Shown: piece after piece, positions 3,001 through 58,066 of the stretch
Layout: each line of letters starts with the position of its first letter
How positions within the stretch are numbered: position 1 is the first letter of the stretch
Source of the DNA: Bolinopsis microptera
Taxonomy: Eukaryota; Ctenophora; Tentaculata; Lobata; Bolinopsidae
DNA: 64,000 nucleotides
NCBI RefSeq assembly: GCF_026151205.1
Contig: NC_087072.1
Coordinates: forward strand, 7,674,084-7,738,083
Direction: 5' to 3'
Made by a program: the position numbers and the translations under genes
Notes under the pieces: model-generated
What the model saw: the letters and a program-made list of their open reading frames with translations, nothing else
Databases searched by the model: none
Told to the model about the DNA's origin: nothing

Positions 3001-6000
3001 CATTTCTCAGACATCCGTGATCCGGAGCCGATAGTTTTAAAATGGCGTTGATTACAGCTGATTATAATGCCGATTTACAACTTTAACTTCGCAAGTTTTT
3101 TTACTTGTAGTTCATCACTTCGACGTGCAATAGAATTTAATTGATTCACGTTGTTCCGAGTATACTTTCGTGCTTATAAGCTTGTCACAATCGAGGGCGA
3201 TACCGTTCTATTAGTTTTTGCTTTAAAGTTATTAAGAAAAAAGCACAGTCAACATGGAGATAAAAATATAGTTACTTTTACTTTAACAGCTTTTTCCTGC
3301 TTGATATCGTCCATTTATTGCTTGATTGTTTGGCCTGGTCGGTACTTTTGTATTTGAATTCTGCAGAGTTTGGAAATGGTTTGTGCTCAAGAGGCATGAT
3401 CTAGCAAAACCATTTCTCAGACATCCGTGATCCGGAGCCGATAGTTTTAAAATGGCGTTGATTAAAGCTGATTATAATGCCGATTTACAACTTTAACTTC
3501 GCAACTTTTTTTACTTGTAGTTCATCACTTCGACGTGCAATAGAATTTAATTGATTCACGTTGTTCCGAGTATACTTTCGTGCTTATAAGCTTGTCACAA
3601 TCGAGGGCGATACCGTTCTATTAATTTTTGCTTAAAAGTTATTAAGAAAAAAGCACAGTCAACATGGAGATAAAAATATAGTTACTTTTACTTTAACAGC
3701 TTTTTCCTGCTTGATATCGTCCATTTATTGCTTGATATCACTTCTTGTTTTTCGTTGTAAGCTGGAAGTTTGAGTTTCAGATATATCCCTCGGGCCGTTT
3801 TCAATTTGTTTCTTAGAAAATATATTTCTCGATTTCTCCTATTGCATATATGGCTGCACTTCAATTGACTCTAGTATTGATATCGTTTCAATGGCTGTCC
3901 TTCCTGATGGTACCATTCGTCATTCGTGGTCAAAGATATGGTCGAAGGGAAATATGGACTGATTTTAATGTACATAAGTCATAAATCAATTTCCAGGGTC
4001 TAAATACCTTTTGAATGTTTTAGCGTGATTAAAAGCTAAATACTTGGGTATAGAATTGAAACGGGTACAATTTAAGATGGAACGGTTTTGACCAAACAGT
4101 ATTTTAGACATGTAGTGCAATAATATCGACTGTCGTTGTCAACTTACCTTATCGGATATAAATAAAAAATATGAACGTAGGGCCTCCAGCGTCTTCGTAA
4201 TTTCTGTCAAATAAAGTCCGATAAGGTACTTGCACAAAAACAGCTGTTTAAGATTATGATTGCCATACTCTTCTGGTATAATTATAGACCAGACAAGTAT
4301 GGTGGTATTGTAACTATATCTGATTTAACTTAATTAATTTAATTTATAGGATAAAATATTTGGAATCTTCCCTATGGTAGCCCTCCAGGCTCCACGGTTT
4401 TTGATTTTGGGTATAACATTGTAACAACGACATCTCAATAGCTGGCTATGAAGTAGCTATTAACCATTCAATTAATCATTTGATTAATCAGCCTTCAACT
4501 TGTTATTCAACAGAATAACTTATTATTCAAAAGGCTAACTAGTATATCATCAATATCAAAAACAAAAATGGTCAATAGGTACCTAGTTGCCATTATGGAC
4601 AACGTCCATCTTATCGAACATAGTGGTAATTTGAACTATGGCCGACTAATATAGGCGGTATGGTAATTTAATGTTTGATGCCGAAGAGTACGTTGAGATG
4701 AATAATATACGCATTGATTTTATTCCACTATTTTTTCGCATTGCAATCACATGAATAAATTGTAACTGTCATTACTTTTTTTAATAACAATTCCGATACT
4801 CATAATAGTCGCAATCGCATGAAAAATTGTTACTATCATCAATTTTTTATAATAATTCCGATACTCATAATAGTTGTAAACAGACAATTTATTAATGTTA
4901 TCTCCGATATCGTTACTTGTTGCTAATGCTAAATTTGTAAATATTCCATTTTAACTTGTCACGTGGCGACGATATTTATATTTTCTTCACCACCTCTTTT
5001 CATCACGAATACACGATCACTTTCAATGACACAGGAATATTTACAGTCACAATCGCCACCGGTACTTCTCAGATCTCACAAAGTCTCATGGATAAATGTT
5101 ATCAGTATCCATGAATAAGGGTGCCCTAATTCCGGGGAAATGTGTTTTTGCGACATTACGGTACAATCAGCTCAAGTTCATTGTTCAGCACAAAGAGTTT
5201 GAATCCATAATTAAAAGTCTTCCTTCTATGCTTGTCAGCGAACGCGTGCAACAATTTTTAATTAGCAACATTTACAAAAACACTATCGACCTCAGGAAAA
5301 ATTCATTGCTTTTTTATGTCCGCTCTCGAAAACTAGTTTTTTCCGATATCGTATTAATTTAAACTTGCAAAGGATCGTTTCATCTGCCGCTTTCCGGACT
5401 TTCAAAGCGTAAAACTTTTCCTGAATCAAACCGTGAACTGACAGTACAAGTGAACAGTGGCTGACCGACTGCACTCTGGCGACTTACTGCAAACAGACCG
5501 CGACTTAAGTGACCACACTAAACACTTGTATTAGACATGGAGCGGTCTGAAATGTTGATTCAATTGAATAATGAATAGGTGCTATTATCAAGTCATTTAT
5601 ATTGTTACATAGTTTTTATTGTTAGTTCATTTTATCGGCGATCTTATCTGGCCAAGATAATATATAGTGAGTATTTAATACTTTTAGTGATCCTAGCCGA
5701 CCTCAAATTTTAATAAACTGATGGAAATTGTCCCCATGATGTTGTTAACATCCGAGAGACTTCTCTCGAATGATAACTCATACTGAACTCTTTTGATTAA
5801 GCAGTCTTACCTGTCAGAACTACAATATTGCGACTATAGCTACTGTCTCAGGCCTCAAGCAAAATTTACGAAGATCTTTCATCTTAACCATTCAGGTCTA
5901 AAATGATAAAATCAAGAAAATAGGTGGCCGAATGTCCTTAAAATGTTAACAAGAAGACAAACAATAGAATCAAACGTTCTAGTAATAAAACGTGGGAAGT

Positions 6001-13147: not shown

Positions 13148-16100
13148 TTACCATGTTTTCTTGGCAACAGCCCAGTCACACGAATCCTCCACACCGATCA
13201 TATCAACACCCCTGACAATACGGAACCAGCCCTCTTCACCCCAGTAGGTACCCCAGGAGTTCCTTCCAATCCAGAACTTTGTACCATCGGCATCAACTCC
13301 GTAACCAACTATCGAGATCTCGTGATTTGCACACTTGTCTCCGTCCGGATCGTTGAAGATTCCCCCGGTGTACGCCTCAAACTTGTCGTTAACGCATAGC
13401 GAGCAAGCAATCGGACCACGGGCGGATATCTCAGCCATCATGTTTCCTTCTCCGGCCACTTGCCCGTGCTCGGTGATGTGCCACTGAAAGAATATGATCT
13501 ATAGCTGTAGTTACTTTTAAATTGGCGTGTAGAAGAATTTAAACATAAGTCGGCTCGAAAAAGCGATCGCTTAAAAGATATATGCTTGATATCTGATAAA
13601 AACAAGGAATGACGTTAAGAATAAATCATTGCTATTTGTCACCACAGTGATAAGTATTCCGTGAAGATAGATAAAACTAACCGTGTAATACTCCGTCACA
13701 GCCCAGCACTTGTAATCAATGTGATCAGGATAGAACTGGGTGGGCATGCAGTTCTTGCAGATGTTGATTGGCTCGCACTGGTCATCTGTAGCGGTGTAAA
13801 TACTGCACGTGTCGTCCGTGATCCCATGCTCCATGATCCAAGAGTAAGCTGCGGTAGGGTCCCCTCCGTGACAACCTGAAATATGGTGGAACTTTAAAAT
13901 AATCAAGCTGGCGTGCTAAGTCATAAAGAAATAATTAAATCGCGGCAGATACCACTTTCATTATTCTCCTGATGTGCTATAAAATTAGAAGCGCTATTTT
14001 AAAGGAATAAAATAAGCCTAATACCTGCAGTATCATTAGCTCGGACGCAGTCCACTAGGGGTTGAGGAGACAGGTTAATATCTGGCCACGCTCCCCGCCT
14101 CGCCATCTTGATTCTGTCAGCCAGAGCGGAGGTAGTGCCGTGAGCCCAGCAACTTCCGCAATCTGTTGGTTTATTTAGTGACACATTGACAGGTTTGAGG
14201 TGAGGTTTTAAACAAGTAAACTGTGCAAGTTAGCTATTTGGGTTTGCTTTTAAGCGTGAACTCATTTTCTGAAAATCACTAGTTAAGCATTATTAGTCAA
14301 GAACTTACAAACTGGGATGTGTTGGTTCCTGTTAACAGTGGTGTAGTCTTTACCGCCCATATTTCGCGGATCATATGCCTTAGGTAGGTCCTCAACTTTA
14401 AGGTAGGTATGAGGTTGCGGTGTCTTAACATGAGTCTTCGCTGTCTGATTGAATGTATAAAGTAAGACAGGTTAACCAATTAAAGAGAAGAGGATTTTCT
14501 TACTGCTCAAAACCTAATACACAATCAATAATGTATAATATGTTGAATCCTCATCTTTTATATATATGCTATATATAGCATATATTATGTTCTTAATGAA
14601 GTAAAATTCACCAGACAAAATCACTTACCGGGTCTTTCACGACACAGGTTTTAGAGTGGTATTTGGGCTTCTTCTTTTCGACGGTTGGTGCGGTTTGAGA
14701 AACTTGTTCCCAGCTAGGGACGCCCCACGTGCAATCAGTTTCAAGTGCCAAGTTGTGTTTGTGCATCATCACTCTGGGGAGATTTGGATATTGTAATGAA
14801 ATTAGAATCGATCGACCCTCGAGGAATATAGTTATCTGGGGACCGCAGCCTATCATATTTATGTTCACAATCATAGAGATTAGGCGGAATGACAGGCTGA
14901 GCGCGGCCCAGTAAAGCGCCGCCCAGTAAGGAATATTATAGATAAACGCGAATGTCATGTCTGAGATCTGATATCGCAATCGTTTTGATAAGTAGACTAT
15001 CTAGCTATTGATCGAACAGTCTGCACTAGATGGCCGGTAATACGTGAGCGATCGGGTAAATAATAAATATAATCGAATCATGCATGCATGATCAAATTCA
15101 CGATGCGATGATTGCGATCGACGTGATTGATCTGACTCGATATATATATCGAGTATATAATATTAATTATGTACGTCGCGTTATATTTTCCCACGCTGCG
15201 CGTGACTGACTGTCAAAGTATTCTAGCGCGTTCCAGTAAAAATAAAAAGTAGACCTCCCGTTCTATCTGGTCACTTGTAGAATGTTACAGTTATCATCGG
15301 TATCATCAAAATAGGGTTTATCCGAATGCCTTCGACTGTCGACACACATATATAGGTTTCTAAAACACTTTGTGCACACGAAAACATGTACAGGGTAATT
15401 AAGAAGCCTAGTTATGTTACAAAAATTTTATAAAAATAGAAACCTGGAAATTTAGGTACATACCAAGTGTGATAGAATGACTAACTACATATTATATTAG
15501 TTTTACCACATTTCGGCACCCTCTTTTCAGTGGCCTAATTTCACCGGAATTGGAGGAATACCTTTTATAAATGCAATTTCCCAATGTTTTCCAAACAATT
15601 CTTCAGCTTATGACTAATAAAACTTACTTAGCAAAACCGTTGATTCCCCAGTATGATCCCCAGGAATTCCTGAGCCACCAGAACTCAACACCGTCCTCTA
15701 CACCCCATCCGACTAACTGACAAATACTTGATTATGACAGGGAACACAAAGTTAAACTAATATGTACATTTGCTAACAAAGCTGTAATTATAAAGGCAAA
15801 TCACACATGGCCACACAAAATACTAATAGAAAAGTAAAAAAGAAGTGGCAACTAACAGAAATCTCGTGGTTGATCATGGGGAAGAGTTTGAACTCGCTGT
15901 AGATCCCGCCTGTGTAATTCTCAAACTTGTCTGTCACCATGATTCCGCACCCGATGGGACCTGACAGTATTAAGTAGTGATAAGTGTTTACAATTTAGTA
16001 ATATGACGGATTATTAAATTCTGGGAACAGCTTTTTTGTCCAAGTTGTATTACAAGACAGGTGTGAAATTTGGTTTTTGGCCGATTTTCGATGTAAGTAA

Positions 16101-19100
16101 TACTCATTACTCATCCTGTAATCTATTCTGTGGAATTATTTATGTAGTTCTGCAGATAGTACAATTCATTCTGTTGCAGATATTCGAATAATGATATATC
16201 AATGATAATGAAATGCAGTGACCAAGAAATATTGCACTGTACTCCAATATTTACAAAGGTTAATACATTTATGGGATTTATAGTGCAAGCGAAGTACTAA
16301 GCCTCTAATTAATTGAGCGAGCGATGTGACACATAGAAGATCCGAGTCCACTGAATGTTCATAAATGCTAAATCTGAGCCTCTAAATTATTATTGTAGCC
16401 AAACAATCAATTTGACCGAATCTGAAACAGTGCCTCTGACTTGAATATGCTGCGGTTTCTTACAGTAAATTTATACCATAATAGTTTCTCCGAAACGTGT
16501 CGTGTACATACAATACGAAATTACCAATACTGACAAAGCACGATCTTTTGATACCACTTCTTTACTCACTAAAATATACCCTTCACTGTGAAGCCTCTGG
16601 AATGAAGCTGCTCTTATCACATATTTTATGGTATTCAATGATACTTCTTAGTATCTTCTGCTAATTTTGTTATATGTCCGACAAAAACCAGCTATTGCTT
16701 TCGACTGGAGAGCGTTCAGATAAAAAGCGTGTGGAGTAGGCATGGCAGATTCAAAGAGACTACAATCTTCGCTGTTCATGTATATATTTATATCTAACTG
16801 GCTTAATCGACCAAGTAAAGGTTTGAAAGTATTACTAATGATTTTGAGACTTCAGGAGCCAGCATCTCACATTGTGAGATTCTCACAACTAGGGAGAGCA
16901 CGTAAACTAAAAGCACAATGCAAAGGAGCTATTTATGTAAATTTATAGGCTGAGCAACTTGTGATTTACAAGATCACACTAGTTTAATCCAGACTTGGAG
17001 AGATTAGGATCTTGAAAGAGACTCAGTTCGTACCAGTACGTACTAAACAAAAATCTGAGTATGAAGATGAAACTATAGTAGGCCCTTTTGAATTATGCAA
17101 AGACTAATCTGCTCACCTTTGCACCCGGTGAGTAATGCATGCTCTGTTAGCACAGAGAGGAATGATTTTAATGTCCTCGGTGCAATACGGGCCCAACAAC
17201 CTTTCCGTTGTTAGTGCTGAACGCACTTAAGTAAAATATTTTGTCTCTTTAGTAAAGTTAATTGGGATTTGGGTGACCATTTGAGTTTTGACTGCGTGAT
17301 ATAATGACGACCTGATTGGGCTCCCTGTACGATTAGTGTGCCAATCCAATCACATGATCCCGCGTGAAAATAAACTCGTTGTGTTTGATACCTCGGTCAT
17401 CTGAAAAGCTTCCATATTTTTAGGAAAAGTGCAAGTGAGCACTCATTAACTGAACAATAAGCCCAAAAGTTTGCACTCTGACCTATCGGCCGACCTAAAG
17501 ATTTAACATGACATCATTTTTTTCTAAGTTGGTAAATTAATAACCCGTCACTTTAAAGATGATCGCGTTTGCCATAAGGACTACGGAAACTGTACAAATT
17601 GTTCAACGATATAATTTCATGAAATACTGCTGATTCTAAATACATTTTTATATTAAATATTTATACACCATGTTATAAATGTGTATTCAGGCTGACTTAG
17701 CATGGCCCGTAACCTCGTGTTTCTCGTATTTCTGGGTCTAGAGATTTACAGTGGGTCCAATGCTGCTATTCCAGGTAGGACGATTAATCATAGTTTTATT
17801 ACAATGCTCCAATAAATTACCTTGTCATTTACATTGAATACACACTACAATAGAACAGTAAACCCAGTAACCCCGGTGACCCCGGTAACCCATAGTTATC
17901 ATAATTAATAATTTCTTGTGTGGTTAACAGCTATCATTCCAAATCCAATTAACTACTCGTAATTGTACAAAGCTGATCATGATATAATACTAATATTTCC
18001 CCTCAGCTTGCGCACAGGAGCATAGAGACTTTGCAGGAAGTGATATATCTGGTTTTTCAACCATGGACAGCCTTATCAGCTGTATCAAATATTGCCAGTC
18101 AATAGAGGGCTGCCTATCTTTCACATACGACATCAAACCCAAAAATTGCTGGCCTAAGAACAAAGAATTCAGTGAAAATGAGGCCATAACCACTCAAAGT
18201 GATCAGGATCTATTTAGTGGCAACATAAAGGAATGTGCAGGTACGGTAATGTTATTATATTACTTACGACATTCTACCACTTATCTTTGAAGTATGCACA
18301 AGAAATCACTGAAATCACTAATAAACCGGAATCAGACAAAAAATGTAAATGAATGTATTTGATAAGTTATCTTAAGGGGGCATACCCCAAATCTGTCCAG
18401 ACCTAATGACCTCATAGGCAGTTCAGTGACCTTCTAGCGCACCGTTTCCACACCAAAAAAAATTATTTTGAGAATTCCCATTTTTGTAATCGAGCATTTC
18501 CTGGTTAAGAGTGCAATTTTCGGAAAATATTATTTTGTGGTTGAGACGCTATAAAATAATTATTTCTTGCGGTATCGGGTTGAAATTTTGCTCGCCGTTT
18601 ATTCACATATATGTCAAGGTGTGTGTAAAATCTTGATATCGTATCTAAAAAGGCTGGTGTGTTATGAATTTTTAAAGTCAAAAAGATAAAATTGTCCTTT
18701 TCAGGCTTATTTTAACAAAAAGTCAGTCAGGGAAGATCGGATTATTTGATGCTTGACATCAAATTGTTCTCTGAATTCTGGCGCAGTTTTAGATGCCCTC
18801 AAAAATGTTTTTACTCATTCACCTTCTGATCTATTGGACAAACAACAAATTTAGGCACATTTTTCGTTTTTAATATTTACTGATTTTTCTAAAATTTTGA
18901 TAGGAATGTGCTAGTGACTTTTTGAAGGGTGCAAAATAACCGCAACTAGCACATTTATATATGAGTTATGAACAACAAAACACCCTAAAATGCTTCCCTT
19001 TGAAGTTATGGGAGAAAATGTGATTTTTTGGCTTTGCAGATTAAAAATCACATTTTCTCCCATAACTTCAAAGGGAAGCATTTTAGGGTGTTTTGTTGTT

Positions 19101-22100
19101 CATAACTCATATATAAATGTGCTAGTTGCGGTTATTTTGCACCCTTCAAAAAGTCACTAGCACATTCCTATCAAAATTTTAGAAAAATCAGTAAATATTA
19201 AAAACGAAAAATGTGCCTAAATTTGTTGTTTGGCTTTGAGGTCCAATAGATCAGAAGGTGAATGAGTAAAAACATTTTTGAGGGCATCTAAAACTGCGCC
19301 AGAATTCAGAGAACAATTTGATGTCAAGCATCAAATAATCCGATCTTCCCTGACTGACTTTTTGTTAAAATAAGCCTGAAAAGGACAATTTTAGCTTTTT
19401 GACTTTAAAAATTCATAACACACCAGCCTTTTTAGATACGATATCAAGATTTTACACACACCTTGACATAGATGTGAATAAACGGCGAGCAAAATTTCAG
19501 CCCGATACGGCAAGAAATAATTAACTTATAGCGTCTCAACCACAAAATAATTTTTTCCGAAAATTGCACTCTTAACCAGGAAATGCTCGATTACAAAAAT
19601 GGGAATTCTCAAAATAATTTTTTTTGGTGTGGAAACGGTGCGCTAGAAGGTCACTGAACTGCCTATGAGGTCATTTGGTCTGGACGGCACAAACCACTGT
19701 TTTGGGGTATGCCCCCTTAATTACAGTTGACGGAGGTTGGAGTGACTAGTAGTAGTAGTGAGATTTTGTAGTTTAGCAAACGCTAAAATCCTATTCTTGT
19801 ATTTCTAGGGTAAATAATAGAGTATTTCCTTTCAGAATATTGTGAGGGTTTAAATGAATCTTGGGAGCACGCAGTAACAAGTGGTAGCTTTCCTCTAAAA
19901 GCAGAGAAGACAATCACAGTGTCCTGTGAGAGGAAGTACATTAACGTAGGAACAATAACCCTCACGTGCACTGTCGGAACACTGACCGGGGGAGAACCCA
20001 CCTGTCTTAAACCAAGTGAGATAAAATTGCTTTATTTACGTCAAATAATATGACATGCTGATTTGAAAATGCAACCAGTAGTTAGGGCTGCTGTGTTGCA
20101 TTTTCAGGCAGTTAGTTGATAAAACGATAGATAAATAATTTTAGTATTGTTTGTTGAAGAGAGTGGCCCAGTGGGAGTCATATTTTTGTGTGACACGTGA
20201 CCGTGAATAACCAATCAGCATCCAGCATCGACCAATAAAAACCCAGAACCACTGGACCACGTGTCACCAGTATCCACTTATATTAAATAGTATTTTAGTT
20301 ACAAACCTCTAGCGTATATCTCAGCCTTCATCCTGTCAGCACCTCTAACACTGCCGTACTGACTAACTTTGTAGTTATCATACTTCTCAACTGGGTGGCA
20401 CTGAAGGAGGGTGCAGTCAGTTATTGTAGCTTTTTGGAGATCATGTTATAAACATTAAGTACGACATGTTGGAACTATGAAATAAATTCATTCGTTTGTT
20501 AACCACACGGCACACAGTTTAATATAATTATAATGAGCGATATTTTAGGTATCCTCGTTGATTTTAACTTACTCCAGTTTCAGGATCACATGTCTCACAT
20601 ACACCCAGTGGCTCACATTCGCCGTCTTTTGCCTGATGAGTGATAGGGACTTTTAGCCGAGACTTGATCATAAAATCAGACTAAGGATAGCACTGTTCGG
20701 CACATGATTCCTTTCATTTTCATTTCGTCTCGTGTCGAGTGACATAAAAACATAGACACGACAGGCTAGCATGAAAGTCTGCTTAAACCATATTAGAATA
20801 GAAACAAGATTATAATGTTCAGATTAGAATAGCAACAAGATTATAATGTTCAGATTACACGTTGTTAATTCTTACCACGTAGTTCTGACAGGTCTCGTCA
20901 GGAATACCCTTACTCTCAATGTACTCCAGTGCAGCGCCCGGGTTACCTCCTGTAGGATAAATGTAGGAGGTAGGATCAATGTAGGAGGTAGGATCAGAGT
21001 GAAAACTAAACTACATAATATCTCTTTACAACCAACATTTTGCAAGTTTTAAAACAAAAATATTCTTTTAAATTATAAGGCCTGCATAATTAAATTGCAA
21101 GCTGGTAATCTATCTGAAGAAACGTACCCTCGCAGCTACCACCACCCCTGCAGTTGACCAGAACCTGAGGAGACAGCTGGATCCTAGGCCACGTGTTGTT
21201 GCGCATTATGGAGATCCTGTCACTCAGAGCTGATGTCGTGCCCTGAGCCCAACAACTACCGCAATCTGGGGAGATGTGAGATGTTAGAAAGCTCTTAGTA
21301 CGCGGTGCACTATTTTCATGTGATAATAGTTGAGTTAAAATAGGAGCGTGACTGTATAGACGTGATTTCTTTAAAACATCAGGAATCGAGCTAAGGAGTT
21401 GTGATTTAATTAGTATCATGGGTGTAAAGTGCTCTACACGGGCATCTTTGTATACGATTTCTGCTCAGATACATTGTATGCCACGAGCTTATCACCGAAA
21501 TAAAAATATAGCGTCAGTAAACCAATTTCTCCAGTTTCTCATGTCTCTTCAATCATTTCAACAATAACATGTATCATGTTGGTGTGAGTGTCACGTGGCC
21601 ACATGTTGACAATGAAACTGGATACGAATTAATGTAAAACTTTGTTCCGTGCGGTGCCCATACATTTACCCCAGGTAAGAATTACAAATAACCTTATCAA
21701 GTCGCTGACACAAAACTTCCAATAAAGCATCTGGCACAGTTTTTCATCTTGCACTTTGTTCAAGTACACAACTATGTAAAAAAGTTACACAACAATGTAA
21801 ACAGGAAAGTTACACGTGTACATGTGAGTCACACACGGGTATGTAGAGAATGTTACACTCTTGTAGTGTACACTTTGACTTACATATGGGGATGTGTTGG
21901 TTCCTGGTGGCGGTTAGATAGTTTTCTCCGTTAACATTGCCCCAATCCCAGCTGGTAGGAAGCTCGTGTTTTGTTAACAGTTGGTGGGGTAAGGGTGAGG
22001 TTATCTTCTCTCCTCTCGAGAACGACGCTGGAACAAAGGATATAAATAGTAACGGAGTTTTATATTAACAGGAAACGATGTTACAGAGTCGATATATTTT

Positions 22101-22765
22101 AATGTTGCCATGGGGTGGCAAGTCCCCATACATCGTGGTCCGGTAGTTTCATTGCGTCCTAATATATAGTCCGATAATTTCACTGCGTCATAATGTATAT
22201 AAACTTTTATATATTAACCTCTTAATATTTTGACTTTTGCTTTTTATCGAATCTGTGGTAAGTTATCATCGCGTGATAATCGAGCAACGAACTTGGCAAA
22301 TTCTAATTTTCGTATTTAAGCGATAGCATGTGATGATGACGTTAGCAGTAATTCTGAATTCTACAAAACATTCGCTGCGTGTGTAGGAAGCTGATTCCAA
22401 AAACAGGGGAGTAGGATATCGAATAACACTTATGAGGCATGCTACTCAAGTCATGCTTTGCAATACAAGGAAACAATACATATTGGTGAGGTAGGAATCA
22501 GGAATGTATCTTTGTTCCGATATAAATTGTACAATTGAGAACCAAAATAATATTAAATCTAAATTAGAGAGAGCTTTAAAGAGGAAGTAGATCATCAACT
22601 TTCAAAGGAAATAAATTAATTGAGGAGAAATGAACAGAAACGTTCATTACATTGTAAACATCTGATGATTTTAATAGTGTTTTATTTACCTTTAGCATCT
22701 CGACAACCTTTCATAGCTGCAACTGATGCCAGAGCTACTGCAGCGAGTAGCACCAGCAGTCTCAT
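13148..22765 (-). CDS. Double-domain cathepsin Z/X-like cysteine protease (papain family C1A)
   Basis: Thirteen exons on the minus strand join in frame to 575 residues: 22690-22765, 21884-22027, 21128-21265, 20876-20949, 20573-20632, 20307-20400, 15857-15960, 15628-15716, 14629-14773, 14309-14444, 14025-14162, 13682-13875, 13148-13483. Residues 1-17 (MRLLVLLAAVALASVAA) are a signal peptide. Domain 1 has the cathepsin Z mini-loop and active site RNQHIPIYCGSCWA (Cys78), NHEIS (His227) and RNSWG (Asn247), ending with LALETDCTWG. The exon at 14629-14773 encodes both that C-terminus and a linker with a propeptide-like Cys (SKTC). Domain 2 repeats RNQHIPVYCGSCWA (Cys358), His518 and Asn539. Both triads are intact. 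Cathepsin Z is normally a single lysosomal carboxypeptidase of about 300 residues. The splice positions at HIP-Y/CGSC and before the next Gly are shared by both domains, pointing to internal tandem duplication. Intron 6 (about 4.3 kb) hosts another gene. Transcript proof is lacking. Confidence 0.85.
14831..14929 (+). mobile_element. TTAC...GTAA mini-MITE, copy A
   Basis: This is a copy of the short family seen also at 36163, 51271 and 63388. It starts TTATCTGGGGACC and ends GCCCAGTAA, with the conserved core GGCGGAATGACAGGCTGAGCG. The 3' end carries an extra GCGCCGCCCAGTAA. Flanks GGAATATA (14823-14830) and GGAATATT (14930-14937) match at 7 of 8 bases, fitting an 8-bp target-site duplication. 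It lies in the intron between exons 8 and 9 of the cathepsin Z-like gene. Confidence 0.75.
17702..20015 (+). CDS. Secreted PAN/apple-like plus sushi (CCP) protein, nested gene, 3' end unresolved
   Basis: Three exons join in phase 1: 17702-17774, 18007-18240 and 19836-20015. The first encodes a signal peptide (MARNLVFLVFLGLEIYSG). The second, flanked by phase-1 introns, has six cysteines and the apple/PAN-like features CIKYCQSIEGCLSFTYD and NCWPK. The third is a sushi-like module with EYCEGL, an internal SCERKY, LTCTVG and GGEPTCLKP; its four cysteines and final G-x-P-x-C fit CCP domains. Exon 3 may splice at 20016 (GTGAGA, phase 1) to exons I could not find, or read on to a TGA at about 20049-20051. 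The gene lies wholly within intron 6 of the opposite-strand cathepsin gene. Such proteins are usually secreted adhesion or recognition molecules; the ligand is unknown. Confidence 0.65.
18376..19716. mobile_element. 1.34-kb foldback element flanked by TTAA
   Basis: Two arms of about 650-670 bp are near-perfect reverse complements (about 18376-19028 and 19043-19716) around a short loop, GGCTTTGCAGATT. The ends are GGGGGCATACCCCAAA and its complement. TTAA lies directly outside both ends (18372-18375, 19717-19720), as expected for a TTAA target-site duplication (piggyBac or Kolobok type). The right arm has small indels relative to the left, so the copy is not brand new. No transposase is present. 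It lies in intron 2 of the PAN/sushi gene. Confidence 0.9.
20160..20279. mobile_element. Short MITE with paired CACGTG motifs, copy 2
   Basis: The ends AGTGGCCCAGTGGG and CACCAGTATCCACT are imperfect inverted repeats. Inside, GTGTGACACGTGACCG and GGACCACGTGTCACC face each other. Terminal CCAGTATCCA and the inner GACACGTG are shared with the element at 12779-12915, so both belong to one non-coding hairpin family. It sits in intron 6 of the cathepsin gene, just before exon 6 (20307-20400). Confidence 0.5.
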
Positions 22766-23599: not shown

Positions 23600-23926
23600 T
23601 CAACCTTTGGTCTTCGGCGGATTTTTCTGAATTATAGGCTTGGGTCTCGTCTTGAAAATGTACTTCTCCTCAATGACAGATTTGATTACCCAGTTCTTAT
23701 CAGCAGTTTTAGTCATGACCCCAAAAGGTTTCTCAAGTTTCACAACTTTTCCAGTCAGTATGTGATGTCCTATAACCAGCTGTGGGGTCCCCGTTTTGTC
23801 GATGTGGAGGTCCCCAATGTGGGCACCTTGGAATGCGACGGATGAAGGACAGTCCACCTTGCCTTGTAGCTCCACCATCCCCCATTTGTCCAGGGTGTCT
23901 TGTATCTTCAGCACAACTTGAGGCAT
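23600..23926 (-). CDS. CHTF8: Chromosome transmission fidelity protein 8 (CTF8)
   Basis: A single coding exon encodes 108 residues from MPQVVLKIQ to the TGA at 23600-23602. The core WGMVELQGKVDC, GDLHIDKTGTPQLVIGHHIL, GKVVKLEKPFGVM and IFKTRPKPII matches the CTF8/CHTF8 family closely in order and spacing (human about 121 residues). CTF8 is a small subunit of the CTF18-DCC1-CTF8 alternative clamp loader, which acts with PCNA in sister-chromatid cohesion. The frame is open upstream to 23977, but a TTAG acceptor just before GGCCCAACAAAAGG suggests a 5' UTR intron, so I chose the start at 23926. The next gene (cathepsin) starts about 830 bp further on. Confidence 0.88.
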   Translation of the reverse strand: MPQVVLKIQDTLDKWGMVELQGKVDCPSSVAFQGAHIGDLHIDKTGTPQLVIGHHILTGKVVKLEKPFGVMTKTADKNWVIKSVIEEKYIFKTRPKPIIQKNPPKTKG

Positions 23927-24797
23927 ATCTTCTACCGCTGATACCTTTTGTTGGGCCCTAATGTGATAAAGTGACACGTAATACTATTTATTTTCAAGTA
24001 AAAATGGAGTGTATAGCTGTGTGAAATTAGATTATGTTAGGAATTTCCCAAAATAACACCTCACGTACACGAAAATCAGACATTTAATTTGTTTATTGAT
24101 GATGGTGATCAGTGAGAATGTTAAAGGATGATCGTTTGAAAAGAACTGTTGAAGGTTGATTCAATTTACATTTAAATAAAGATGGGATCCTAGAATAAGA
24201 TTACGATCTTGAGGTAGGTGTACTAGAGCAGTCATATTTTGGAATGTTTGAGCTATGCGCACTGATGAGAAAGAATTTAAGAAAACACAGATCGATATAG
24301 TTAAAAGATTAAGTTCTAAAATAAAATAAAATAAATTCATACAAAGTCATCACTCATCATCCATCATTCATGTTCAATAGTAACCCCGTTATTATTATAT
24401 AACCCCATTATATCATATTATAAGAATAAGTAAATATTCATCGGAAAATAGATTATAATTTGATTCATAACTAATAAATTTAATAATAATATACATCACG
24501 TCATGCAAATAATATTCTATGTAATAAACATTAACATGCATTAAAGAATTATAATAATATGTACAATTAAATTGTTGAACAAAAATTACAAGTTTACAAA
24601 TTGTACAGCTTTAAATTGACAAAATGTCTCCAAATTATTCGGGCGGTTTACATAAATTTCACACACACATGAAAGTATATAAATTATGCAAAAAATCAGT
24701 TGAGAAATAATAAAAATCTTACATCAACTCAATTAGAAAAGTGTGCATACTAAGGCTCACCAAAGATCCCCGAAATGTGCTATGTCCGTGAAACAAC

Positions 24798-26698: not shown

Positions 26699-26803
26699 TG
26701 CTACCTGTTATCCGAGGTACTGATTTAATTCTAGTCAAAGAAACGTGGTAATCTAGATATTTAAAATAGATAATTTTATGACTTGGAACCGCCTGCCATA
26801 GTG

Positions 26804-29536
26804 ATGGAGGTCACAAAGAAACTTAAACTACCAACAGCAGCAGAGAAGGGAGTATGGAAGGGAATTGATGAAGACCTGATTGTTTTGGTGAACAATGTAG
26901 CAGCAGAGGACGTGGAGTCTCGACTGGAGAAGGTAGAAAAGCTGGTATACAGCTATCTGGAAAGCAGATTCGGTGAAGAGGAAGCGAAGAAACCTCGTGT
27001 TCCCCAGAAAGAAAAGGAGAACAAGGAGACAAAAGTTATTCGCTTGGCCAAGAGAGAGGCTAAGAGAAACAAGAAAGATGCTAGGAGAAGCAATGATCAG
27101 AATATGTTGGCTCAAGCTAAGACTGAGTACCTGAGACTCGTGCGCTTACACAACAAAAGCCGTCGTAATGAGCTCAGGAAGAAGAAGAATAAGGAGAGCA
27201 AAAAGGAACAGTCACAGTTTAAACAAAACCCATTTCAATTTGGAAGGAAACTGCTGGACGGGGATAAGAAGAACAAACCCCCTAATTTCTCCAAGGAAGT
27301 GGCTGACAGATTCTTTAAGAATGAGTACTGTGATAAGGAGAGAAGTGCTCTATATGTAAAGCTTAAAGGACTGCCCGATGCCCCAGTACCAAAGACTGCA
27401 TTTGAGATGGAGAGATTAGACTGGGATGAGTTTCAAACGAAGCTGAAAAGCCGTAGAAATAAATCATCACCTGGTCCGAATGGAGTCCCATATCTGGTAT
27501 ATAAGAGATGTCCCAGAATGGCGAAAGCAGTATTCAAATTGCTGGATTCTCTATGGGAAAGCCAGAGAGTCCCGCTGCAATGGCGAGTAGGTGAAGCCAT
27601 TCTGATAGCAAAAACTGAGGATTTAGATGACCCTAGTAAGTTCAGAAACATCACTAAAACAAACACTAGTGGGAAGTTGCAGATGGGATTACTAGCGGAC
27701 AGAATGCTAGAGTATATGGTCAGCAATAGCTACATAGACACGTCTATCCAGAAAGGATTCCTGCGTAAGACACCAGGTTGCCTCGAGCATACTCAGGCTC
27801 TGATGGAAGAGTTGAAGGATGCCAAATCTAATAGACGACAGATCTTTGCAGTTTGGGTGGACCTAATGAACGCCTACGGCCGGGTTCCCCACAACTTGAT
27901 AATATATGCTCTAAGACATTATAAGTTCCCAAACTGGCTCATAGAATATATGTTTAGGTACTATGATGAGCTGATTGTGAGAGTGGTGACAAAGGACTGG
28001 AAAACAAACTGGTTCTTTTATATGTTAGGTCTTTTTCAGGGCGACCCTCTATCGGTTGTACTGTTCTTAATAGTTTTCAACCTACTATTGGATCTCCTGA
28101 AAAATCAAAGCGACTTGGGTTACAAGCCGTCTTTTAGTTCTAGCAGCACGTCAAGTCGTGCTTTTGCTGACGACCTAACTCTGATGTCTCCCAGGCTGGA
28201 AAAGATGAAGAAGCTAATAGATGTGATGGAAAGATTTCTTACTTGGTCAAGGAAAATGAAAGCCAAGCCGAGTAAATGCGTATCCCTGGGGATGAAGGTT
28301 ATAGATGGAAGGTATGTGTCCTATGACCCTGAAATTTTCATAGATGGAGCTCAAATCCAGTTTATTGGAAATACACCGATGAAGTTTCTTGGCCATTGGA
28401 TATATGTGGATCTGGGCCTCAAAGATACCAAGAAGCTGATAGAAGACAAACTGATTACACTGTTTCAGGCAGTGGACGGATCAGGCCTTAATGGAGTGAT
28501 GAAATGCTGGATTTACAACAACCTCCTAACCAGCAAGCTCTCCTGGGACCTGATGATCTACAATCTCCCGGTTAGTTTTGTCAAAGATCTTGAAGCAATA
28601 TGTACGAAGTATCTGAAGAAATGGCTAGGTGTAACAAAGACAATTACTGTCAGTGTGCTTTACAGAAATAAGGATTGCTTTGGATTGAATCTTAAAAGAC
28701 TATCGGACTTATACAAGTTCCTTCAGGTGTCCAAAGGTTACTCTCTAAAGAACAGCAAGGATCCTAAAGTTAAGGAGGTCTACGAGCACAGGGCCAAGAA
28801 ACAAGAAGGGAGCAGTCGGTGGGGTTACACTAATGAGCTGAGTGCTAGAGAAAGAGATCTCTACTTCAGAGAGTTAGTAGGGGTAACAGTGCAAGGCAGG
28901 ATGGGCTTGGGATCCAAGAGGAGTGTAGCCAGTGAAAAGGAAAAACTGAAAGAACTGGTATCCCACATCTCAGAGCAGGATATCCTGTTGACACTGGTAG
29001 ACAAGGGAGTTCAAGGACAATTCTTAACATGGGAAAACACCATGCAGCTAGACCTAGGTTGGAACAACCTTATTTACAACTACAAGATGAGCCCTGCTCT
29101 TCTTAAGTTCCACCTCAATGCAACCCATGACGTTGCAAATACTCCAGCAAACATGAGCCTGTGGAACTATGCTGACACAGGACACTGTCCACTTTGCGGA
29201 TGGAGACACTGCAACATTAAGCACATTTTGGTAGCCTGCAACTTCTCGCTGAACAACAAACGATACAATTGGAGGCATGACAACGTGCTGCGGGTCATTG
29301 CGAAATCCCTACTGGATCAAATCGAGAAGTTCAACAACAAAGATTTTAAACTTGAAGTTCAGGACTGGACAGGCTTCAAGTCATCTAGCAGCTGTTACCA
29401 AAAACCGAAGACGAAGATGAAAAGAGAGAGCCCTTTTGAGAAAGACCAAGATTGGCAGATTATCTGGGACGAAGATGACCTCCCAGCACAGTTCCCCAGC
29501 ACATCTACGGAACTGCAGAACGTCCCGATATTGTAG
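26804..29536 (+). CDS. Reverse transcriptase ORF of RLE-type non-LTR retrotransposon
   Basis: An uninterrupted frame of 910 codons runs from the first ATG (26804); the same frame is open upstream without an ATG. A lysine-rich N-terminal third leads into the RT: SSPGPNGVPYLVYKRC (fingers), WVDLMNAYGRVPH (motif A, catalytic Asp), FQGDPLSVVLF (motif B) and RAFADDLTLM (motif C, two catalytic Asp). Near the C-terminus CPLCGWRHCNIKHILVAC is the CCHC knuckle typical of RLE elements, followed by KRYNWRHDNVLRVI. The TAG at 29534-29536 cuts the frame just where the endonuclease continues in another frame. No N-terminal CCHH fingers or Myb-type DNA-binding motif is visible, so the 5' end may be missing or the family may lack them. 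Confidence 0.85.
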   Translation: MEVTKKLKLPTAAEKGVWKGIDEDLIVLVNNVAAEDVESRLEKVEKLVYSYLESRFGEEEAKKPRVPQKEKENKETKVIRLAKREAKRNKKDARRSNDQNMLAQAKTEYLRLVRLHNKSRRNELRKKKNKESKKEQSQFKQNPFQFGRKLLDGDKKNKPPNFSKEVADRFFKNEYCDKERSALYVKLKGLPDAPVPKTAFEMERLDWDEFQTKLKSRRNKSSPGPNGVPYLVYKRCPRMAKAVFKLLDSLWESQRVPLQWRVGEAILIAKTEDLDDPSKFRNITKTNTSGKLQMGLLADRMLEYMVSNSYIDTSIQKGFLRKTPGCLEHTQALMEELKDAKSNRRQIFAVWVDLMNAYGRVPHNLIIYALRHYKFPNWLIEYMFRYYDELIVRVVTKDWKTNWFFYMLGLFQGDPLSVVLFLIVFNLLLDLLKNQSDLGYKPSFSSSSTSSRAFADDLTLMSPRLEKMKKLIDVMERFLTWSRKMKAKPSKCVSLGMKVIDGRYVSYDPEIFIDGAQIQFIGNTPMKFLGHWIYVDLGLKDTKKLIEDKLITLFQAVDGSGLNGVMKCWIYNNLLTSKLSWDLMIYNLPVSFVKDLEAICTKYLKKWLGVTKTITVSVLYRNKDCFGLNLKRLSDLYKFLQVSKGYSLKNSKDPKVKEVYEHRAKKQEGSSRWGYTNELSARERDLYFRELVGVTVQGRMGLGSKRSVASEKEKLKELVSHISEQDILLTLVDKGVQGQFLTWENTMQLDLGWNNLIYNYKMSPALLKFHLNATHDVANTPANMSLWNYADTGHCPLCGWRHCNIKHILVACNFSLNNKRYNWRHDNVLRVIAKSLLDQIEKFNNKDFKLEVQDWTGFKSSSSCYQKPKTKMKRESPFEKDQDWQIIWDEDDLPAQFPSTSTELQNVPIL

Positions 29537-42207: not shown

Positions 42208-42340
42208 ATTACTTCTACATTATCATCACTACTATTGTGGTTATATCACATCAAATGTTTTTAATTATCTTATCGTCAGATAATCATCAACTTATCGTTA
42301 ATAATTCTGTTTGACAATTGATTGTTTGCGTCACCGGTTT

Positions 42341-42740
42341 GCAGCCCAGTGCAGCTCAGTGCAGCTCAGTGCAGCTCAGTGCAGCTCAGTGCAGCCCAGT
42401 GCAGCCCAGTGCAGCTCAGTGCAGCCCAGTGCAGTTCAGTGCAGCTCAGTGCAGCTCAGTGCAGCTCAGTGCAGCTCAGTGCAGCTCAGTGCAGCCCAGT
42501 GCAGCTCAGTGCAGCCCAGTGCAGCTCAGTGCAGCTCAGTGCAGCTCAGTGCAGCACAGTGCAGCTCAGTTCAGCTCAGTGCAGCTCAGTGCAGCTCAGT
42601 GCAGCTCAGTGCAGCCCAGTGCAGCTCAGTGCAGCCCAGTGCAGCCCAGTGCAGCTCAGTGCAGCCCAGTGCAGTTCAGTGCAGCTCAGTGCAGCTCAGT
42701 GCAGCCCAGTGCAGCTCAGTGCAGCTCAGTGCAGCCCAAT
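42341..42740. repeat. Minisatellite, 10-bp unit x 40
   Basis: Exactly forty 10-base units GCAGCYCAGT run from 42341 to 42740, with C/T variation at the sixth base and a few other substitutions (GCAGTTCAGT, GCAGCACAGT, TCAGCTCAGT). The unit has no stop codon in three frames of the plus strand and in one minus frame, so long low-complexity open frames appear there; they are by-products of the repeat. Confidence 0.95.
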
Positions 42741-45286
42741 TTAGCCCAGATAACAGTAGTAACAGTGCAGTGTGCTTAATCCTTTCATTCTCACCTGACT
42801 CCTTCTCCATTCGATCAAGTGCTGAAAGTTGGCACCTGTTTTTAACTACACAGCTAACTCTGTGTAATCGCATGAATACTTGAGAGTTTAACTGAAACAT
42901 ATTTCAAGCAGGGTTTCCTTTCGTTGCTTATCATTGAGTCGACGAAGAACATTATCATATTATCAAATCATTTGTCTTTATAATGAAGTCTCGCCGACAC
43001 TCAAACTCAAATACTTTGCGTTTGTTTCGTATTCCTATTTACTCATTACAACATATCCGCATTATGACGTTAGGAAATGGTGGCCGCGGAATGCGGATGC
43101 CACTGATTATAAGACAATAGAAAGAGCCAAGGAGTGAGAGGTTTGTTTAATGTTAGAATTTTAGTCTGGTCGTGGCTATTTGTCTCTTATAGCTCTTTTA
43201 GTTTTATATCTTTAAACTATACGGGGGAAAAAAACAGTGAGTCCCATAAGTCGTACCATTTTCTTGATTAAATGGTTTGTAAATTACACACGCACCTACC
43301 CACAGAGTATTCACTATTATTAAGTAGATTTCCGTGCTGATCAATGCCTTAGTGCAGTGCTATCAAACATTAAACGTAAACGTACAAAGGATTTATATAG
43401 GCTGCCATTGGGTAATCCTCTCGCTCTTTTTTACTTACTCTCTCAGGAAGACATATTATACCTCGATATCATCTAACGACCAAGTAAGCTGCTGTCTCAA
43501 ATATACAAATTCAGATGATGATGAATAAGCATCATTGAGAATGTGGCATCGCAGTTTGGCCCACGAACTATAAAATTCGCACGTGTTTGCACTCATGTCA
43601 TGTCAAATCATGTTTGCATATCATGCCGTCAGCCGTGGTCCACACTTCCCACCAACTCATGATAATATAAAGCAGGTACTGTGATCGTCACATATAAAAA
43701 ATTAATATCATAATGAAGGAAATGCAGGTTAATTTGCGCTCGTGTGCTGCAGAGTCTCATGATCCAAGTCACGGATTGCAGCATGCAATAAATTGATCAT
43801 CGCTCAACTGTCACTTTATTACTGTCAACTGTCACTTTATTAGTCCGGTTTAGACAAGTCTCTACGCTCCGGAGTCAACTCATTTCTGTCTGGCCGGCGG
43901 ATCTCTGATTCGCTGATGAGAACGCACAGATTTATACTTGTCCAGTATCAGAGATCGTAGCAGTTGGAAGCAGATCATCTGGCATCGCTTCATTGCTGTT
44001 TTACTCGCTAATACGGATGTAAGACCTCCCGGGGACACTTTACCTCCCGCGAACATGTTACCTTTTGGTGTCCTGGTCAGTCGATACTCAAACAGTAACA
44101 TAAACTAAAACACCAATCTTTCCCATCAATGTTTAGAGGTTGTTGTAAGCGAACACTTCAGCAAGGACGTATTACTATTTGAGTATTTGTAGTAGTCCTT
44201 CACAACGCAGAAATGGGTACAAAGACTTTTGAAACACCCTAAATGTGATTTGTGAGGTCATGAACCATCTTACCGGCCGCTAAAAGGCTACCATAACTTT
44301 ATATTACACCTGGCCCGAACTGCAATCCATACACTTACAGAGAGCCAAACCCCTACAACAAACAATGAAACATAATTGTAACCCTTTGGTGCACAAACGC
44401 CCTCAAGTAAAAGTAACATATTGCATTTATTATAACAGAGGAAACTTTGTACCTTTGATTAATTACACCCTAGAAACTTATAAAGCTTCTTCACAAATGA
44501 AAAGCTTTATTTTGAAATTAGCTGTCATGTGCAAGGCTTAGATTGCTCTTATGAGAACCTGCTCTAGTTAGTTAGATCGAGTTTCCTAAAACAATAGAAC
44601 TTGTGTAGTTGTCTGACAGCCCAGGCACTGGGTAGTACTACTACTAGTGAATGCTGGCTGAGACAGTCTTTAATTAACTCTTTCAGTTTTATTTTTAGTC
44701 GAGTCATTAAGATATCTTGTTAGTTCGATTAAACAGCTCACCAATTAAAGCAACTAATGCTCACCGTTCAATGAGGCATTGATACAATGCTTTTGTAGTC
44801 ATGTTGTTTTGATGCTAGTGTTCATTGAGCTCCGTCTTGCTTGTGCAGTTGAAGGTTTTCGTTAGAATGCCAAGCCAACGCCCTAAGTTGATTAAGATTT
44901 CATGCTTGAGATTTATTCCTTCCATTTATGCAGGCAGTTGTAGCAAGATTCAACCTGACTAAGTTCAAGCATTTGAGAAATATTCCGTCTTTGAAGTTAA
45001 GTGATTGGTTTCAACTGATTCAAACTTTATTACATTATGCTTGGAAGCTATCATTAGAAAACAAAATGTAAAATGACTCGTTAGCTTCAATTCGCCCTCG
45101 ACTAAATGCTTCAAAAATTGTATTAATCGAAACTCAATTAGTTGAACTATAGACATGTGAAATATCATATGCCTATCTTAAAACTTCTTCCTGTGACAAT
45201 CTTCTTGGGAAAAACGTGGTCCATCTCGTGCGAACTTTCCTAATGACCTATGCACCTATGTAATCGTAGTAATCATGATCATAAGC

Positions 45287-49439: not shown

Positions 49440-50725
49440 TTTACAATTTCACGAAAATAAAAGAAGATCGTCTATAATAATTTAAGGTAATACAGTAAAT
49501 AAAGTTCGAGTACTACATCTGTTTGCGAGGGTTAAGGGACGTTTTAGGAGGATTACGTAGATTTGAGGAGTCTGTAAGGTACTTCCCGAACTCTTTTATA
49601 TGTGGTGAGTTCATTATTGCTCCATATTCTTTTAGCATCAACAGACTTTTGAGGTTGTCAGAGAGGTTGGACCTGAGTTGATGGTAGTAGGGGCACTCAG
49701 CTAGGACGTGGTCTTCGGTTTCTAGAATGGGAGTTTCAAAGAAGGGGAGCTCCTCTAAAAAATGTATGACATCCGTTTCTGAGGAGCAGCAGAAGCGACA
49801 CGTTTTAAGAGCTGTGTTGAGTTGATCTTTGGTGTAGCGACCTTTTTCTATCCTAAGATCGTGACTGCTAGATCGGAGTTTAGCAATATTGACCCTTTTA
49901 AGCCGGCAGGGGAGCTGTAAATAGGGTTCTTCGCCAAACTCGAATTTAACCGCTGTGTAGAAAGACATTTTGGGCTGGTTGAGGAGATCTCTCTTCCAAT
50001 GGTCAACAAATGTCTCATGTATGTACTCACAAGCGTCTAGGGTTAGGTGATAACTGCGGCTTGGAGACTGTACTCATCTTGGCAATAGTTGACCACGCAT
50101 CATACCAGGTTAGATTCAGTAGCTTTTGCTCTTGAAAGGTGTGGTGCAAAAGAGTGTTCACGTTACCTTCTACCGCCAGTGATGCCCGATGGAAGTAAGC
50201 TAAACATTGGGGAATGACGGTAACTGTCCAGGGGGTTCTACCAGTGTCACCATAGCAGAAGTTGTTATTAGCTTTCTTGTGAACGCCTAGTATCCATTTG
50301 AGAATCTTCAGATGAGTTGGTTCGAGAGGATCTTTAGCTGCAGATTTAGGCAGGCTCACTTCTTCTTTTTTCGACAGGATAGCCTTTACGATGTTTGTTG
50401 ATGAGAGCCAGACGGGACATGCATAGGTCGCTACAGGCTTTACTAGACTATCGATAAGTTTAAGCATCGTGCTGGTAGTGAGCGCTTTTGTGTTGATAAT
50501 TCGCCTCATTGAGAAGAATGAGCGTAGAGCTTTCTTCCTAAGTTCGTCGATAGCTTGCTTAAACGATCCATTCAGAGAGAATTGGATTCCGAGATAGCAG
50601 TATCTTTTTACTGGTATAATGTCCAGGCTTCCTAGTTTAAAGCCATAAGAACATTTAAGTGTTCGTGAGCTTGTATTGAAGACCATCACACTGGTTTTGT
50701 CGATGTTCACTGATGTATTTGTGTA
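49440..50725 (-). pseudogene. 3' part of a non-LTR retrotransposon (RT C-terminus), frameshifted
   Basis: On the minus strand, 50710 to 50027 encodes the late RT region: KTSVMVFNTSSR, KRYCYLGIQFSLNGSF, KKALRSFFSMRRI and YACPVWLSS, the pattern following motif D in Jockey/CR1/L1-like elements. The frame then shifts near 50040 and continues as EYIHETFVDHW and 49968-49513, which contains a Cys-rich stretch (CRFCCSSETDVIHFLE) of the sort found at the C-terminus of such proteins. The 5' part, including RT motifs A-C and the endonuclease, is absent, as expected for 5' truncation. The 3' end is AT-rich with ATTTATTC repeats (around 49380). It is inactive. Confidence 0.75.
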
Positions 50726-51208
50726 ACAATTTGAAATTTTATTGATTAAAAAAAATTATTGCAGATCGCTCCCACTGAATCGCTCGCCTCAATTAAAAAA
50801 AAATTCTTGTGAAAAGGCTCTGAGGGTATGCAAAAGTAATCTGAGTAGGACGCTGATTCCGAATCTCCAATACTCCATGTCATGCATTTTTTGTTTTTAA
50901 AATAATTCAAAACATCATGCAATTTTATCAAAACATTGTGCAATTTCATCAAATTCTCCATTTTCCACCTTCATGTTGATCCACACTATAAATATCTCCG
51001 GGATTTCGACGCGGGATCATATTATCACTCAGCCCGGCCCGCTGTTAGATAAACATCTCAAGGTGATATCATCCCGCCCCGGAAATTTGTATAAACCCGG
51101 CCCGCTTTTTAGTCGTAACTGATGTTTATCATTCAATTCTTCGACTTACAATAATCAATGATACTGCTGATTAGAACTCGATAATAGTAGAACAGTTAGA
51201 CGCGCGAT

Positions 51209-57957: not shown

Positions 57958-58066
57958 AAGTGGTGCTGCGACCGAAGAACCTTTACTGCAACAACCAACA
58001 TACAGGTACCAAAGCACCTTTCTCCAGTTGAGCACTAATTTTGTTACAATACCAAATAGTATAGCC

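What the first reader, a model, noticed from the sequence alone, without database searches (positions are those of the whole stretch)
13148..22765. One gene encodes two complete cathepsin Z-like proteases in tandem
Seen: 13 minus-strand exons join in phase into one 575-codon frame with one signal peptide and two copies of the cathepsin Z hallmark HIPxYCGSCWA, each with its own Cys/His/Asn triad (78/227/247 and 358/518/539). The decisive exon, 14629-14773, carries both the C-terminus of domain 1 and the linker into domain 2 without a stop. The linker has a Cys in a propeptide-like position, as if a second proenzyme had been fused. Known: cathepsin Z is normally single-domain, with a short propeptide whose Cys blocks the active site. 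Inferred: internal gene duplication, giving a double protease that may be cleaved in the lysosome or stay bivalent.
Basis: partly seen in the sequence, partly recalled or inferred. Interest (0 to 1): 0.82.

Follow-up and report, generated by a model that had tools for sequence, protein, structure and literature searches.

The report
Fused double cathepsin Z gene
In what is probably a comb jelly genome, the only cathepsin Z gene that could be found encodes two complete cathepsin Z enzymes in one protein, the second with its own propeptide acting as the linker, which suggests a two-enzyme precursor, although proof from transcripts is still missing.

Summary
Thirteen minus-strand exons with GT-AG borders join into one 575-codon frame holding two cathepsin Z (CTSZ) units, each with Gln-HIP-x-Tyr-Cys, catalytic Cys/His/Asn and a Cys-bearing propeptide. 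One signal-like peptide precedes unit 1. Exon 14629-14773 carries the end of domain 1 and the start of propeptide 2. No other CTSZ gene was found in the 264.7-Mb assembly, which fits the ctenophore Bolinopsis microptera.

The origin needs correction. The domains share 48.7% identity, about what each shares with human CTSZ (52.2, 44.4) or a protist CTSZ (50, 51), and the tree does not settle whether they are sisters. The split is old, or one copy evolved fast.

Most likely it is a double proenzyme cut at the second propeptide/mature junction into two carboxypeptidases that may pair as human CTSZ does; this step is inferred. Not excluded: exon 2 to 11 splicing, which gives a complete single-domain enzyme, or an internal start in intron 8, which overlaps a dispersed repeat. 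No transcript data were available.

The parts
22690..22765 (-). exon 1: start codon, only signal-like peptide, propeptide 1 Cys21
   Evidence: hydropathy
21884..22027 (-). exon 2: propeptide 1 and start of mature domain 1 up to NQHIPI
   Evidence: aligned to 1deu
21128..21265 (-). exon 3: domain 1 active-site Cys78 (YCGSCWA)
20876..20949 (-). exon 4: domain 1
20573..20632 (-). exon 5: domain 1
20307..20400 (-). exon 6: domain 1
15857..15960 (-). exon 7: domain 1 with His227
   Evidence: intron 6 before it is 4,346 bases and holds a + strand PAN-domain gene candidate and a fold-back repeat
15628..15716 (-). exon 8: domain 1 with Asn247
14629..14773 (-). exon 9: C-terminus of domain 1 (NLALETDCTWGVP) plus linker/propeptide 2 with Cys303, no stop
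14309..14444 (-). exon 10: rest of propeptide 2 and start of mature domain 2 up to NQHIPV
14025..14162 (-). exon 11: domain 2 active-site Cys358; same length (138 nt) and border phases as exon 3
13682..13875 (-). exon 12: domain 2
13148..13483 (-). exon 13: domain 2 with His518, Asn539 and stop
14831..14920 (.). copy of a short dispersed repeat inside intron 8; makes much of the hydrophobic stretch of an in-frame alternative start

Best explanation
One gene makes one secreted/lysosomal preproprotein: signal peptide, Cys-propeptide 1, CTSZ domain 1, Cys-propeptide 2 (the linker), CTSZ domain 2. Each domain has the full catalytic set and the HIP mini-loop of a carboxypeptidase. Because the linker is itself a propeptide, the maturation cut known for human pro-CTSZ (made by cathepsin L in vitro) would, at the second site (before LPKAYD, residue 328), both activate domain 2 and free domain 1. 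Equal amounts of two diverged carboxypeptidases result, which may pair as the human enzyme does. Shown: gene anatomy, catalytic residues, propeptide Cys, no other CTSZ gene found in the assembly. Inferred: expression as one mRNA, the cut, the disulfides Cys21-Cys78 and Cys303-Cys358, activity and pairing.
For: Thirteen in-phase GT-AG exons, one start and one stop. Domain 1's C-terminus and propeptide 2 share one exon. Exon 10 read back is open for 9 codons without a Met and then meets a stop, so unit 2 has no start of its own at that exon. Reading exon 9 on into intron 9 ends after VSDFVW. Domain 1 matches 1deu over query residues 33-279; the second half matches it from KTPQPHTYL (propeptide part) on, query residues 38-279 of 298. 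Between the domains pN is 0.368 against 0.722 for random codon pairing, while pS is saturated (0.743 against 0.775): the protein sequence has been kept. No CTSZ-like gene among the other matches: 101 of 107 and 83 of 94 matches are outside this gene, best 65.9 and 72.4 bits at 33% identity. Human CTSZ: short propeptide disulfide-linked to the active-site Cys, not self-activating, processed by cathepsin L in vitro, active homodimer (PMC13257197 section 2 read; passages of PMC10707025, and PMC10650516).
Against: No transcript evidence. An in-frame open stretch of 76 codons with a Met at 14958 runs from intron 8 into exon 9. Exon 2 to exon 11 splicing would keep frame and give a complete single-domain enzyme. 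The 50-residue linker alone matches no solved structure up to E = 10, and the alignment to procathepsin X begins 12 residues after Cys303, so propeptide 2 is recognised by its C-terminal part and by the spacing of its Cys only. D2 has two Cys (494, 515) that D1, human and the protist lack. Absence of AATAAA/ATTAAA from introns 8 and 9 (0 found) is weak support for one transcript, since by base composition only about two would be expected (my estimate).
Confidence: 0.58

Rival explanations
1. The chain is never cut between domains: it acts as a permanently linked pair, a single-chain version of the CTSZ dimer, comparable with polyserase-2 and -3 whose protease domains stay in one chain.
For: Human CTSZ is an active homodimer; tandem serine proteases that stay in one chain exist (PMC1435904 abstract).
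Against: The linker is a propeptide that should have to leave the domain 2 active site, and it holds a basic stretch (EKKKPKYHSK), so a cut there is expected. Not testable here.
Confidence: 0.2
2. The locus makes single-domain enzymes by alternative splicing: exon 2 to exon 11 (or 3 to 12) puts the one signal and propeptide 1 onto domain 2; retention of intron 9 gives domain 1 alone as a 314-residue chain.
For: Exon borders at HIPx|Y are phase 1 in both domains. Of 25 in-frame single-skip junctions, 5 leave one copy of each of four motifs (E2-E11, E3-E12, E4-E13, E5-E13, E6-E12); E2-E11 and E3-E12 join at matching places and give 295 residues.
Against: Phases match because the domains are homologous, so this needs no selection; no splice evidence.
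Confidence: 0.12
3. Two adjacent genes wrongly joined: domain 2 has its own promoter and start in intron 8 (Met at 14958, MTFAFIYNIPYWAALYWAALSLSF).
For: 76 open codons upstream of exon 9 in frame, with Met and hydrophobic stretch; 188 of 20000 simulations reach 75 for one acceptor.
Against: The reading would still include about 23 residues of domain 1's C-terminus; from its 14th residue the stretch lies in a repeat with 42 other listed matches (14831-14920; 40 of 1352 candidates scored); exon 3 has 67 open codons upstream too, so with 12 acceptors looked at the run is not remarkable; hydropathy peak 2.0 against 3.15 for exon 1.
Confidence: 0.07
4. Assembly or haplotype artefact.
For: None seen; only one assembly was available.
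Against: Exon 9 spans the junction, one locus, and the domains are 49% identical so not collapsed alleles.
Confidence: 0.03

Closest known systems
Cathepsin Z/X (human procathepsin X 1deu, cathepsin X 1ef7)
   Same: Catalytic set, HIP mini-loop, short Cys-bearing propeptide, 52% (D1) and 44% (D2) identity
   Different: Human is one domain; here two in one chain. No RGD in either propeptide and no ECD motif (read), C-terminal insertion 8 residues shorter; D2 has 8 extra residues in the central loop and two extra Cys
Single-domain protist CTSZ on contig JAIYDP010000008.1 (L001)
   Same: 50% and 51% identity to D1 and D2; phase-1 intron at HIPQ|Y as in both domains, read by eye
   Different: One domain; no second CTSZ seen by eye among the frames of 60 or more codons in the 3 kb fetched on each side
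Polyserases 1-3 (human tandem serine proteases)
   Same: Several protease domains from one chain, cut apart (polyserase-1) or kept joined (2, 3) (PMC1435904 abstract)
   Different: Serine proteases, unrelated fold (recalled)
Grapevine papain-like protein reported with two Peptidase_C1 domains
   Same: Two C1 annotations in one protein (PMC8556938, one passage)
   Different: Plant papain type; the passage does not say whether these are two complete enzymes

Membership tests
Cathepsin Z/X (per domain) | Papain-family C1 domain | tested here: met
   PF00112, two stretches, 315.5 bits
Cathepsin Z/X (per domain) | Catalytic Cys, His, Asn and oxyanion Gln | tested here: met
   C78/H227/N247/Q69 and C358/H518/N539/Q349
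Cathepsin Z/X (per domain) | His-Ile-Pro insertion beside the oxyanion Gln | tested here: met
   NQHIPIYC and NQHIPVYC; absent from DPPI in the same alignment
Cathepsin Z/X (per domain) | Short propeptide with a Cys that binds the active site | tested here: inconclusive
   Cys21 and Cys303 at 27 and 25 residues before the mature starts; the disulfide cannot be tested, and the linker alone has no hit
Cathepsin Z/X (per domain) | C-terminal insertion of human CTSZ (14 residues, PMC13257197) | tested here: inconclusive
   8 human residues there are missing in D1, D2 and also in the protist L001, so it may be lineage-specific
Cathepsin Z/X (per domain) | Strict carboxypeptidase activity | not testable with these tools
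   needs an enzyme assay
Cathepsin Z/X (whole protein) | One catalytic domain per chain | tested here: not met
   two complete domains in one frame

The most novel reading that the evidence does not exclude
Two CTSZ paralogues that split before animals arose have been locked into one gene in ctenophores as an obligate heterodimer: the second propeptide is a redox-labile tether, its Cys303 bonded to Cys358, so that after proteolysis domain 1 stays disulfide-bound to and inhibits domain 2 until the compartment turns reducing.
Probability: 0.12. Interest if true: 0.72.

Novelty: new variant of a known kind. Interest (0 to 1): 0.5.

Why it matters
Human CTSZ works as a dimer and does not activate itself. 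A natural single-chain double CTSZ would show how activation and pairing can be built into one precursor, and if it is the only CTSZ of ctenophores it bears on how the lysosomal and extracellular digestion toolkit of the earliest animals was assembled.

Tried and rejected
Recent internal duplication: not supported, but not excluded. D1+D2 sisterhood has AU p 0.23 to 0.39 in three models; D1+human with D2+protist is best (0.63 to 0.79); D1+protist with D2+human is rejected by the AU test (0.013 to 0.022) but not by KH or SH (0.07 to 0.14). Only four CTSZ sequences were available, so this tree is thin.

Repeat origin of intron 8: in the matches listed only the stretch around 14831-14920 is repeated (query 690-800 at most); 40 of 1352 candidates were scored, so weaker repeats elsewhere in the intron are not excluded.

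Relatives in public collections: viral contigs gave no relative for D2 and 2 distant ones for alignment A1; genome contigs gave 20. I read 14 of these 22 (12 of 20 and 2 of 2). Of the 14 only L001 has HIP; L002, L008 and L009 have an insertion of the same length without HIP. The other 8 were not read.

Papers: the listings showed no description of a two-domain CTSZ or of a ctenophore CTSZ. These cover open-licence full text only and are capped: 15 of 400, 20 of 31, 20 of 103, 0, 2 of 2, 2 of 2 and 12 of 1,103 papers listed; titles and abstract starts were seen, not whole papers. PMC6733828 (passages) mentions cathepsin B-like activity in Pleurobrachia. PMC11797021 (passages) has 0 occurrences of 'cathepsin' in its main text.

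Full report
Observation. I rebuilt the gene from the sequence. Thirteen exons on the minus strand between 22765 and 13148 join in phase; 12 of 12 introns are GT-AG; the protein has 575 residues (63.9 kDa). Two CTSZ units follow one signal-like N-terminus. Mature domain 1 starts at residue 48, mature domain 2 at 328; active-site Cys 78 and 358, His 227 and 518, Asn 247 and 539, oxyanion Gln 69 and 349; propeptide Cys 21 and 303.

Is it one gene? The junction exon 14629-14773 holds the domain 1 C-terminus (NLALETDCTWGVP, aligned to human NLAIEEHCTFGDP) and further on KYHSKTCVVKDP, whose Cys is 25 residues before the second mature start, against 27 in unit 1; that the human propeptide Cys lies at a like distance is recalled. 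Exon 10 continues with TPQPHTYLKVEDLPKAYD, aligned to human YPRPHEYLSPADLPKSWD; the alignment does not reach back to the Cys, and the 50-residue linker alone finds nothing up to E = 10. Reading back from exon 10 is open for 9 codons without a Met, then a stop. Reading back from exon 9 is open for 76 codons with a Met at 14958. This is the best case for a separate start, and I tested it: 188 of 20000 first-order simulations of intron 8 reach 75 codons, but 12 acceptors were looked at and exon 3 has 67 open codons too; from its 14th residue the hydrophobic part lies in a dispersed repeat of about 90 bases with 42 other listed matches; and that product would start with a piece of domain 1. I consider it unlikely but not excluded. 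AATAAA/ATTAAA are absent from introns 8 and 9 and present twice within 601 bases after the final stop, but intron 6 has six; this is weak evidence.

Is it the only CTSZ? Searching the whole assembly with each mature domain gave 107 and 94 matches at E up to 0.001, of which 6 and 11 lie in this gene. The rest peak at 65.9 and 72.4 bits with 33% identity. Short matches outside the gene reach 46% over 38 residues, but the same places do not match the catalytic exon as a CTSZ would, and bit scores alone do not separate, since 6 of the gene's 17 own exon matches score under 50 bits. So no second CTSZ gene was found; gaps and withheld stretches could hide one. The assembly (264,652,675 bases; matches at megabase coordinates only on C1-C13; C1 at least 26.1 Mb) agrees with Bolinopsis microptera (265 Mb, 13 chromosomes, largest 26.2 Mb; PMC11797021 table), although the scaffold number differs (232 here, 346 there). 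The species is therefore inferred.

Age of the two domains. D1-D2 identity is 48.7% (114 of 234), D1-human 52.2%, D2-human 44.4%. A contig filed under a Verrucomicrobiaceae MAG (L001) carries an intron-bearing, single-domain CTSZ, 50% and 51% identical to D1 and D2. In the four-sequence test the tree D1+human, D2+protist is best under three models (AU 0.63 to 0.79), D1+D2 is not rejected (0.23 to 0.39), and the third is rejected by AU (0.013 to 0.022) but not by KH or SH. With rat and human DPPI as outgroup, (D1,human) with (D2,protist) is best of seven named trees, five others are not rejected by AU at 5%, and a free search found a slightly better tree that was not among the seven, with D1 outermost and human joined to D2+protist (log-likelihood -2679.95 against -2680.50). 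So the domains are about as far apart as animal and protist CTSZ are here. Either two ancient paralogues were fused, or a duplicate diverged fast.

Introns. A phase-1 intron at HIPx|Y is shared by D1, D2 and, by eye, the protist, and exons 3 and 11 have equal length and phases; later introns of the two domains differ (five in D1, one in D2 at a different place). This fits an old split of intron-bearing genes and argues against a retrocopy. A consequence is that splicing exon 2 to exon 11 would yield a 295-residue single-domain enzyme with signal and propeptide; of 25 in-frame single skips, 5 leave one copy of each motif. This is the best splice-level rival.

Mechanism. In human CTSZ the propeptide is bonded to the active-site Cys, cathepsin L removes it in vitro, and the mature enzyme is an active dimer (PMC13257197 section 2; passages of PMC10707025 and PMC10650516; the primary paper by Dolenc et al. 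was not seen). PMC10380794 (passages) says both monomer and dimer are active. Here propeptide 2 is the only connection between the domains, so its removal separates them. I therefore favour a two-enzyme precursor cut in the lysosome or secretory granule, giving equal amounts of two diverged carboxypeptidases that may pair. The domains differ much less at amino-acid-changing sites than random pairing would give (pN 0.368 against 0.722, pS saturated), and both keep the catalytic residues, so neither looks like a dead subunit. D2 has two added Cys (494, 515), the second close to its His, and eight added residues in the central loop, hints of a different substrate or partner surface.

Verdict. Real, and a new arrangement of a known enzyme: each unit meets the catalytic and HIP features of CTSZ tested here, but the one-domain-per-chain architecture is not met. 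No two-domain CTSZ appeared in the listings; a grapevine papain-type protein with two C1 annotations is mentioned in PMC8556938, so two C1 domains in one protein are not without precedent. Interest is moderate because expression and conservation in other ctenophores are untested.

Noticed in passing
17702-20053 (+ strand, inside intron 6): Candidate nested gene on the opposite strand: signal-like start at 17702, PAN domain exon about 18007-18240 (PF00024, 28.6 bits), then a Cys-rich CCP-like exon from about 19836 without a Pfam match at E up to 0.001.
   Followed up: partly
18395-19685: Near-perfect fold-back repeat (arms 445 + 190 nt, 98-100%) with TTAA next to both ends; 75 matches listed genome-wide, nearly all 93% or more identical (40 of 475 candidates scored), many as paired arms: probably a young mobile fold-back family.
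   Followed up: partly
L001 (JAIYDP010000008.1), 3001-3894 and flanks: A contig filed under a Verrucomicrobiaceae MAG carries an intron-bearing CTSZ gene and, by eye (recalled motifs), a histone H3-like frame and an ArfGAP-like frame: probably eukaryotic contamination of a bacterial genome.
   Followed up: partly
L002, L008, L009: Archaeal and Prevotellaceae C1 proteases with five residues between the oxyanion Gln and CGSCW (NSVGE, NYPKT, NFPHT), the same length as HIPxY in CTSZ but without HIP.
   Followed up: no
whole genome G000: The Peptidase_C1 search counts 154 matches, dozens being nearly full-length domains in one open frame of 270-950 codons, unlike the 13-exon CTSZ gene: a large set of cathepsins with unbroken catalytic domains.
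   Followed up: no
26774-29536, 50027-50755 and 57953-59464: Long frames that look by eye like reverse-transcriptase-type (first two) and gag-like zinc-knuckle (third) retroelement proteins.
   Followed up: no
42305-42883: Tandem repeat stretch (SSVQLSAAQC...) open in three frames, a simple-sequence array.
   Followed up: no
23600-23983 (- strand): Frame of 127 codons just upstream that resembles CTF8 by eye (recalled).
   Followed up: no
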